64,000 nucleotides of DNA from positions 366,234 through 430,233 of the forward strand of contig NZ_AWTC01000001.1 of assembly GCF_000497245.1 (NCBI RefSeq). Direction: 5' to 3'. The notes under the pieces are model-generated. The model was given only the letters and a program-made list of their open reading frames with translations, ran no database searches and was not told where the DNA came from. The position numbers were made by a program, and so were the translations under genes. Shown one piece after another: positions 56,131 through 62,070 of the stretch. The number at the start of each line of letters is the position of its first letter. Positions within the stretch are counted from its first letter, which is position 1. Origin of the DNA: Sporolactobacillus laevolacticus DSM 442 (GTDB lineage Bacteria; Bacillota; Bacilli; Bacillales; Sporolactobacillaceae).

Positions 56131-56250
56131 AACTTCCACAGGATGTGGTGACTTCGTTGTTGTTTCAAGGACGTACTTCCACATAACGTGGTGGCTTCAC
56201 CATTGCTCACAGGATGTGAGCGTATTTTGTTGAAGTGCTTAGTCGAAGTT
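56131..56250. repeat. Two-unit hairpin repeat, locus 1
   Basis: Two units starting with CTTCC at 56133 and 56176 (period 43). Unit stems are CCACA/TGTGG (56136-56148) and CCAC/GTGG (56079+100, i.e. 56179-56191); a second-half stem GCTCACA/TGTGAGC lies at 56205-56221, enclosed by GCTTCA/TGAAGT (56194-56199, 56231-56236). A second copy with the same period lies at 61903-62007. This is the main content of the 366-bp gap 55968-56333. Confidence 0.75.
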
Positions 56251-56314
56251 CCTTATTCGTTTTTCTTATACTAAACACCGCTGATCTTTTCTCTTTGATA
56301 CATTCTTATTTGTA

Positions 56315-61902: not shown

Positions 61903-62007
61903 AACTTCCACAGGATGTGGTGACTTCTGCGTTGTGCATAGGACGTACTTCCGCAGGATGCGGTGGCTTTCGCGTTGTACACAGGACGCGTACGCATTTA
62001 GCGAAAG
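61903..62007. repeat. Two-unit hairpin repeat, locus 2
   Basis: Units start with CTTCC at 61905 and 61948 (period 43, as at locus 1). Stems are CCACA/TGTGG (61908-61920) and CCGCA/TGCGG (61951-61963), the latter changed on both arms relative to the former. An outer stem CTTTCGC/GCGAAAG (61967-61973, 62001-62007) encloses the last hairpin. Confidence 0.75.
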
Positions 62008-62070
62008 ATCCTCTTCTTATTAGCAGAAGATCCTTCTTAACCTTTTCCCGGACTTTCGAACAGTCTCTAT
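62004..62070. repeat. Dispersed repeat copy B
   Basis: AAAGATC (62004-62010), TTAGCAGAAGATC (62020-62032), CTTAA and TTTCGAACAG (62054-62063) match copy A at 36578-36640 in order and spacing. It directly abuts the hairpin repeat. Confidence 0.55.

What the first reader, a model, noticed from the sequence alone, without database searches (positions are those of the whole stretch)
56131..56250. Dispersed two-unit hairpin repeat with compensatory change (locus 1)
Seen directly: two units 43 bp apart, each opening with CTTCC, then a small hairpin and a second hairpin. The same arrangement, also with a 43-bp offset, occurs at 61905/61948. The first stem is CCACA/TGTGG in three-quarters of cases but CCGCA/TGCGG in one unit, so both arms changed together. 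Outer stems also differ on both arms (GCTTCA/TGAAGT here, CTTTCGC/GCGAAAG at locus 2). This argues for selection on a folded structure, as RNA or DNA. I do not recognise it as a known element.
Basis: partly seen in the sequence, partly recalled or inferred. Interest (0 to 1): 0.7.

Follow-up and report, generated by a model that had tools for sequence, protein, structure and literature searches.

The report
Mobile nested hairpin repeats, Bacillaceae-1 type
The two hairpin repeats are worn, nested copies of a known but unexplained "RNA" family (Bacillaceae-1) that behaves here like a small jumping DNA repeat, while in other Bacilli the same module sits in sense orientation, often right in front of ribosomal and transfer RNAs.

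Summary
The observation largely holds: four hairpin units lie in two pairs with a 43-bp offset, with none in shuffles; one first stem is not as stated. On the minus strand both loci match Rfam RF01690, Bacillaceae-1 RNA, function unknown: 59.3 bits at locus 2; 31.9 at locus 1, below the cut-off of 35. At locus 2 one whole unit sits inside another's third hairpin, which explains the 43-bp offset. The host is a Sporolactobacillus with 74 matches, 69 over the cut-off. Many copies ride in a 153-416 bp MITE with inverted ends; 15 of 42 have exact 5-bp target duplications. Both loci are missing in the four sister species aligned. In other Bacilli sampled, 75 of 139 copies lie within 300 nt of a stable RNA gene: 74 sense, 1 antisense; 37 of 67 end within 3 nt of the next RNA's 5' end. 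Dispersed copies show no overall strand preference. Stem changes are nearly all Watson-Crick, with few G-U pairs. I read it as a mobile palindromic DNA module whose sense copies are tolerated or used as stable-RNA leaders. Function is unproven.

The parts
56133..56252 (-). Locus 1: two nested Bacillaceae-1 units, decayed; outer unit 56133-56174 plus closing arm 56240-56252, inner unit 56176-56245 (model match 56178-56245)
   Evidence: RF01690 minus, 31.9 bits, below cut-off 35; own model R1, 52.4 bits; this sequence was in its seed
56136..56148 (.). locus 1 outer first hairpin CCACA-GGA-TGTGG
   Evidence: sequence
56205..56221 (.). locus 1 inner third hairpin GCTCAC AGGAT GTGAGC
   Evidence: sequence; folds
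61905..62039 (-). Locus 2: two nested Bacillaceae-1 units; outer unit 61905-61946 plus closing arm 62020-62039, inner unit 61948-62019
   Evidence: RF01690 61950-62017 minus, 59.3 bits; 70.0 bits; in the seed of R1
61924..61930 (.). outer stem of locus 2, one arm (CTTCTGC); partner GCAGAAG at 62023-62029, enclosing the inner unit
   Evidence: sequence; opener/closer order, (L317: 2 of 2)
61951..61963 (.). locus 2 inner first hairpin CCGCA-GGA-TGCGG (the changed stem)
   Evidence: sequence
61967..62007 (.). locus 2 inner stem CTTTCGC/GCGAAAG with third hairpin 61977-61993 inside
   Evidence: sequence; alignment
62040..62067 (-). one end (terminal inverted repeat) of the Sporolactobacillus MITE, next to locus 2; the other half of the MITE is missing
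   Evidence: sequence, compared by eye with the ends

Best explanation
The two loci are decayed, nested copies of the Bacillaceae-1 (RF01690) palindromic module, a non-autonomous mobile DNA repeat. Shown: in this genus the module is multi-copy, much of it carried inside a MITE with inverted ends and 5-bp target duplications; at locus 2 one module sits inside another's third hairpin; both loci are missing at the matching place in four sister species. Inferred: the module spreads as a hairpin-forming DNA segment, partly hitch-hiking on the MITE (moved by an unidentified transposase) and partly by inserting or template-switching into its own hairpins and other spacers; its arms stay complementary because the palindrome is kept or re-made at DNA level. 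Also inferred: where it lands in rRNA and tRNA operons only the sense orientation survives, often just before the mature 5' end, where the folded leader is cut away with the precursor and may help maturation.
For: RF01690 match and copy number. 42 end-to-end MITEs with 15 exact 5-bp duplications, against a mean of 1.5 and a maximum of 6 in 500 re-pairings; 18 of the 42 are 153-155 bp, the length of the form without modules, and longer ones carry modules at recurrent sites. Both loci absent in L034, L035, L036 and L045. Nested junction in exact 43-bp steps, up to six in a row in G129. Matching order of nested stems, 4 of 5 in L305 and 2 of 2 at locus 2. Presence/absence among rRNA operons of one genome, 2 of 6 in G140. 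No overall strand preference of dispersed copies against genes (19:17; own 10:18) or replication (40:45). Few G-U pairs. Sense next to stable RNAs in 74 of 75, and 37 of 67 within 3 nt of a mature 5' end.
Against: No transposase is tied to it: the one intact Y1 transposase gene of the genome lies in what looks like an IS200 with unrelated hairpins, the MITE hit nothing in 72,556 plasmid records, and other transposases of the genome were not searched. Locus 1 has no MITE end, locus 2 only one. Most nested arrays tested match only at the innermost stem or cannot tell. A pure DNA parasite does not by itself explain 74:1 orientation or the 5'-end position. Conserved loops (RUCCU) imply that something reads them. 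Some tandem copies in the assembly lie at N joins and may be artefacts. The RNA folds of the window loci are barely to moderately more stable than shuffles (z -0.1 to -2.7).
Confidence: 0.5

Rival explanations
1. Bacillaceae-1 is primarily a functional RNA leader of stable RNAs: its hairpins, transcribed from the Rfam strand, promote or protect 5' maturation of 16S, 5S and tRNAs. The dispersed and MITE-borne copies, including the window's, are escaped or captured copies.
For: Sense orientation in 74 of 75 copies near stable RNAs, 29 of 30 family-by-RNA contexts; 37 of 67 within 3 nt of the downstream 5' end, in 15 of 24 family-by-RNA contexts; directly before 16S in five operons of G327 and one of G014.
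Against: Operons and genomes lack it: 4 of 6 operons of G140 and the one assembled 16S leader of the host (L168). 16S, 5S and tRNA 5' ends are made by different enzymes in Bacillus (recalled). G-U pairs are no commoner than A-C even in stable-RNA copies (8 against 17 of 983 cells). 30 of 67 are not at the 5' end, and of 50 copies with a sense RNA on both sides 21 are nearer the upstream one.
Confidence: 0.27
2. It is a CsrA-binding (sponge) RNA made from the strand opposite to Rfam's, as PMC4333381 proposed; the CAGGA(U/C)G loops would titrate CsrA.
For: Window + strand loops include CAGGATG and CAGGACG. PMC4333381 (passages seen) reports the CsrA motif on the reverse complement. 79 of 82 genomes with RF01690 have CsrA, against 154 of 316 without it; the host has one CsrA match.
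Against: Stable-RNA copies are transcribed from the other strand, 74 of 75. UCG loops, which destroy GGA on the reverse strand, make up 14 of 72 third-hairpin and 9 of 72 first-hairpin loops there. G082, G197 and G268 carry the module and gave no CsrA match. The association follows phylogeny and was not corrected for it. Dispersed copies have no strand bias.
Confidence: 0.08
3. REP-type repeat moved by a RAYT/Y1 (HUH) transposase that acts on single-stranded hairpins.
For: Small palindromes, multi-copy, intergenic; the genome has Y1_Tnp genes.
Against: The intact Y1 gene lies in what looks like an IS200 whose hairpins are unrelated; I saw no module in its 3.4-kb locus (read by eye). B. subtilis has the module but is not among the control genomes with Y1_Tnp. 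The carrier has inverted ends with a 5-bp duplication, which single-strand transposons do not make (recalled). No overall replication-strand bias.
Confidence: 0.05

Closest known systems
Rfam RF01690, Bacillaceae-1 RNA (Weinberg et al. 2010, PMC2864571; passages seen, the one holding the name was not shown)
   Same: Sequence and structure of both loci; conserved loops and unpaired bases
   Different: Typed in Rfam as an sRNA gene; here a nested, MITE-borne dispersed repeat. I found no report of nesting, MITEs or the 5'-end position in the listings and passages seen (paper searches); supplements could not be read
Bacterial MITEs (e.g. MITEAba12, PMC6382973, search listing only)
   Same: Inverted ends, short target duplication, many copies
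   Different: Carries folded modules at recurrent sites; partner transposase not found
Pneumococcal BOX elements (PMC3049150, passages seen)
   Same: Composite repeat with a variable number of short tandem modules and an extensive predicted fold
   Different: Here modules can be nested with matching arms, and the module also occurs in rRNA/tRNA operons; sequence kinship not tested
Stem-loop families Bhal-1 (74 bp, 36 copies, B. halodurans) and rRNA-precursor clusters of B. subtilis and B. halodurans (PMC2267715, passages seen)
   Same: Size, dispersal, and rRNA-precursor clusters that those authors set aside
   Different: Whether Bhal-1 or those clusters are RF01690 was not tested; no sequence was at hand

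Membership tests
Rfam RF01690 Bacillaceae-1 | covariance-model score at or above 35 bits, locus 2 | tested here: met
   59.3 bits
Rfam RF01690 Bacillaceae-1 | same, for locus 1 alone | tested here: not met
   31.9 bits, E 0.0059; 52.4 bits with model R1, whose seed included this sequence
MITE (family in this genome) | terminal inverted repeats and direct target duplication | tested here: met
   42 elements with both ends, 15 exact 5-bp duplications against 1.5 expected
MITE (the two window loci) | both ends present | tested here: not met
   locus 2 has one end, locus 1 none seen; neither is among the 42
MITE | partner transposase with the same ends | tested here: inconclusive
   in 28 of 30 fetched end loci a second end followed within about 370 bases, none in L080 and L087; no plasmid match; transposases not searched one by one
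REP/RAYT repeat | flanking RAYT gene (and GTAG or CGTC tag) | tested here: not met
   no module seen beside the intact Y1 gene of this genome; tag definition from PMC3733652 passages, tags not tested
CsrB/Rsm-type sponge | transcribed strand presents several GGA loops | tested here: not met
   near stable RNAs the transcribed strand carries mostly UCC/UCG loops; transcription at the window loci not testable
BOX element | boxA-boxB-boxC sequence similarity | not tested
   only architecture compared

The most novel reading that the evidence does not exclude
Bacillaceae-1 is a portable stable-RNA leader: a mobile, self-nesting hairpin cassette that inserts, or is kept, in sense orientation at the 5' ends of mature 16S, 5S and tRNA sequences across Bacilli, where it works as a common maturation or insulation module, and that in Sporolactobacillus has been captured by a MITE and multiplied genome-wide.
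Probability: 0.3. Interest if true: 0.8.

Novelty: new variant of a known kind. Interest (0 to 1): 0.55.

Why it matters
An Rfam "sRNA" family of unknown role and unsure strand gets a strand (sense in rRNA/tRNA operons), a location tendency (often directly before a mature 5' end), and a mobile, nested form. If right, Bacillaceae-1 calls should not be read as sRNA genes by default. The case also shows that compensatory change in a repeat can occur without the wobble signature seen in tRNAs. Copies directly before 16S make the function testable in a laboratory Bacillus.

Tried and rejected
Rejected or weakened. RAYT/Y1 origin: the intact Y1 gene is in what looks like an IS200 with other hairpins. 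Replication-strand insertion bias as the cause of the sense orientation: 40 leading and 45 lagging over 7 genomes; G051 (7:0) and G052 (17:5) were left out as rRNA-type and two rrn copies of G140 set aside; single genomes vary (G407 9:2, G255 0:5); the terminus was assumed opposite dnaA, and three genome lengths were rounded. CsrA sponge: see rivals. Strand from G-U pairs: expected to favour the Rfam strand, but A-C was at least as common (27:57; about 26:40 when I dropped one more outer pair by hand from the tables, p 0.11). Match of the MITE's variable loop to its target duplication: none seen by eye. MITE in plasmids: no match.

Led nowhere: the repeat finder on the two short regions gave nothing; no held paper names both Sporolactobacillus and miniature inverted-repeat; the broad search listed mostly papers on mites, the animals.

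Limits. One search scored only about 12 candidates per genome, so copy counts there are lower bounds. The stable-RNA statistics rest on top-scoring hits of the Rfam model, which may have been trained on such copies; operons of one genome repeat (30 family-by-RNA contexts). In one search, 20 of the 81 'dispersed' loci (L225-L244) had not been scanned for stable RNAs, genes were ORFs of 90 aa or more, and 21 of 81 were edge cases. The tRNA control took the best of three end offsets and needed 5 Watson-Crick pairs of 7, which trims mismatches. The opener/closer parsing is crude and failed on locus 1 and L139. The regex for site 2 stopped inside filled modules, so its occupancy table should not be used for site 2. 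Some of the 74 copies sit at N joins and may be assembly duplicates.

Full report
WHAT IS THERE. The window lies in a Sporolactobacillus genome: the best named MurC relatives are 91% identical, in Sporolactobacillus sp. STSJ-5 and S. nakayamae. Locus 1 lies between a 142-aa ORF with no NCBIfam match and murC; locus 2 between an ORF matching PRK13668 and an ORF whose best match, DUF84, is just under its cut-off. The four units are real, in two pairs 43 bp apart, with no hit in 100 shuffles.

KNOWN FAMILY. On the minus strand Rfam finds Bacillaceae-1 RNA (RF01690): 61950-62017 at 59.3 bits, and 56178-56245 at 31.9 bits, just below the cut-off. PMC2864571, the discovery paper, holds the name once, in a passage I was not shown. 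PMC4333381 (passages) says that the discoverers were not confident of the strand and that the reverse complement matches a CsrA-binding motif. PMC8208703 (passage) counts 8 copies in B. subtilis; PMC5764928 (passage) counts 10 in a Brevibacillus; PMC9029176 (passages) lists the family among abundant sRNAs with a dash for function.

NESTING. Read on the Rfam strand a unit is AAGGA - arm - CTAA - third hairpin - closing arm - first hairpin - AAGT. At locus 2 a complete unit stands in place of the 5' arm of the outer unit's third hairpin, between CTAA and ACGTCC; locus 1 has the same junctions but is decayed. This gives the 43-bp offset. A 16-base pattern for the junction (one mismatch allowed) hits 10 of 15 Sporolactobacillus genomes: 7 times in this one (locus 1 not among them) and 40 times in G129, against 0 and 1 for the reversed control; in some genomes hits do not exceed the control. 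It repeats in exact 43-bp steps, six in a row in G129. Where stems differ between levels, the order can be tested: 4 of 5 levels match in L305 and 2 of 2 at locus 2 (L317). L130 matches at the innermost level and, by eye, again after one skipped closer. Of the other 14 arrays parsed, seven match at the innermost level only (L306-L311, L316), L312-L314 match at two or three levels but with near-identical stems, L315 and L155 had one level to test, and L139 and locus 1 were not parsed properly. So nesting is shown for some arrays; in others the right half has also multiplied by itself.

MOBILE CARRIER. The genome has 74 RF01690 matches, 69 over the cut-off, with 150 of 449 candidates scored. A 20-base terminal pattern has 65 hits with at most one mismatch and 0 in the reversed control. 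In the fetched loci 42 elements have both ends, 153 to 416 bp long. Exact 5-bp duplications flank 15 of 42, against a mean of 1.5 and a maximum of 6 in 500 re-pairings. Eighteen of the 42 are 153-155 bp, the form without a module; longer ones carry modules after GGGAAAAA, in the loop after CACGTATT, and (inverted) after CCTTGATCTTC. Locus 2 keeps one such end (62040-62067). In the 16 related loci compared, no alignment covers either locus at its own place; in L034, L035, L036 and L045 the flanks meet or are 23-92 bp apart where the window has about 200-270 bp. In the genus 14 of 15 genomes have matches, 1 to 91 each. Dispersed copies ignore gene direction: among 81 non-own copies 19 tandem sense, 17 tandem antisense, 24 between convergent or divergent genes and 21 at edges; among 42 own copies 10 sense, 18 antisense and 14 others. 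Over seven genomes they also ignore replication direction: 40 leading and 45 lagging, with single genomes uneven.

STABLE-RNA COPIES. In other Bacilli the module sits in rRNA and tRNA operons. Over 139 copies in 110 non-own loci (rRNA from Rfam, tRNA from ARAGORN), 75 lie within 300 nt of a stable RNA: 74 sense, 1 antisense (L293). L210, 421 nt from a divergent 16S, is also antisense but outside the cut. Of 67 with a sense stable RNA downstream within 300 nt, 37 end between -3 and +3 nt of its 5' end: 16 before 5S, 7 before 16S and 14 before tRNAs. This occurs in 15 of 24 family-by-RNA contexts. Among 50 copies with sense RNAs on both sides, 29 are nearer the downstream and 21 nearer the upstream one, so the 5'-end position is common, not universal. 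The module is present in two of six 16S leaders of G140 and absent in four; the one assembled 16S leader of the host lacks it.

RNA OR DNA. The stems covary strongly. Inner stem cells hold 27 G-U and 57 A-C of 2964; acceptor stems of 132 tRNAs from the same loci hold 42 G-U and 6 A-C of 924 (Fisher p about 3.5e-11 for the G-U share; cells are not independent). Covariance models normally penalise A-C more than G-U, so the lack of G-U should not come from how hits were chosen (inference). I read this as palindromes kept or rebuilt at DNA level, for example by template switching; that mechanism is inference. Single-strand folds of the window loci are modest: RNA z -0.1 to -2.7, DNA z -1.6 to -3.9.

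MECHANISM. Best reading: a mobile palindromic DNA module, multiplied here with a MITE and by self-nesting; in stable-RNA operons almost only sense copies persist. Two causes for the latter are open: the folded sense leader aids 5' maturation, or antisense copies, which would expose AGGA loops in very abundant RNA, are harmful. The data do not decide between them.

CsrA. 79 of 82 genomes with the module have CsrA, against 154 of 316 without; this follows phylogeny and was not corrected. The strand in stable-RNA operons and the UCG loops argue against a general sponge role.

VERDICT. The nested, MITE-borne form, the sense placement beside stable RNAs and the lack of wobble pairs are what is new here, as far as the searches named under Closest known systems show.

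Noticed in passing
L202 1569-1685, L213 1570-1686, L262 1077-1193; also L206, L264, L278, L280, L281, L296, L304 (genomes G192, G205, G321): A 5S rRNA match lies in the 16S-23S spacer, with a Bacillaceae-1 module directly before it: an unusual operon order, perhaps a copied module-plus-5S cassette.
   Followed up: partly
MITE copies, loop after CACGTATT (e.g. L075, L079, L103): Otherwise similar 154-bp MITE copies differ at a roughly 5-base loop, which holds three of the most variable columns (entropy up to 1.69 against a mean of 0.25 over 14 copies); the same loop is one of the module sites.
   Followed up: partly
L031 and L032 (own genome, contig C4): An intact IS200-like Y1 transposase gene, and a second copy broken in frame near a contig end.
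   Followed up: no
L125, L126, L146, L148, L168: Single N bases, in several cases with duplicated flanks, inside MITEs and the 16S leader look like scaffold joins; some tandem module copies in this assembly may be artefacts.
   Followed up: no
L111-L114 (G140), L115-L124: In other genera dispersed modules sit in different, clade-specific larger repeats, so capture by composite repeats may have happened more than once.
   Followed up: no
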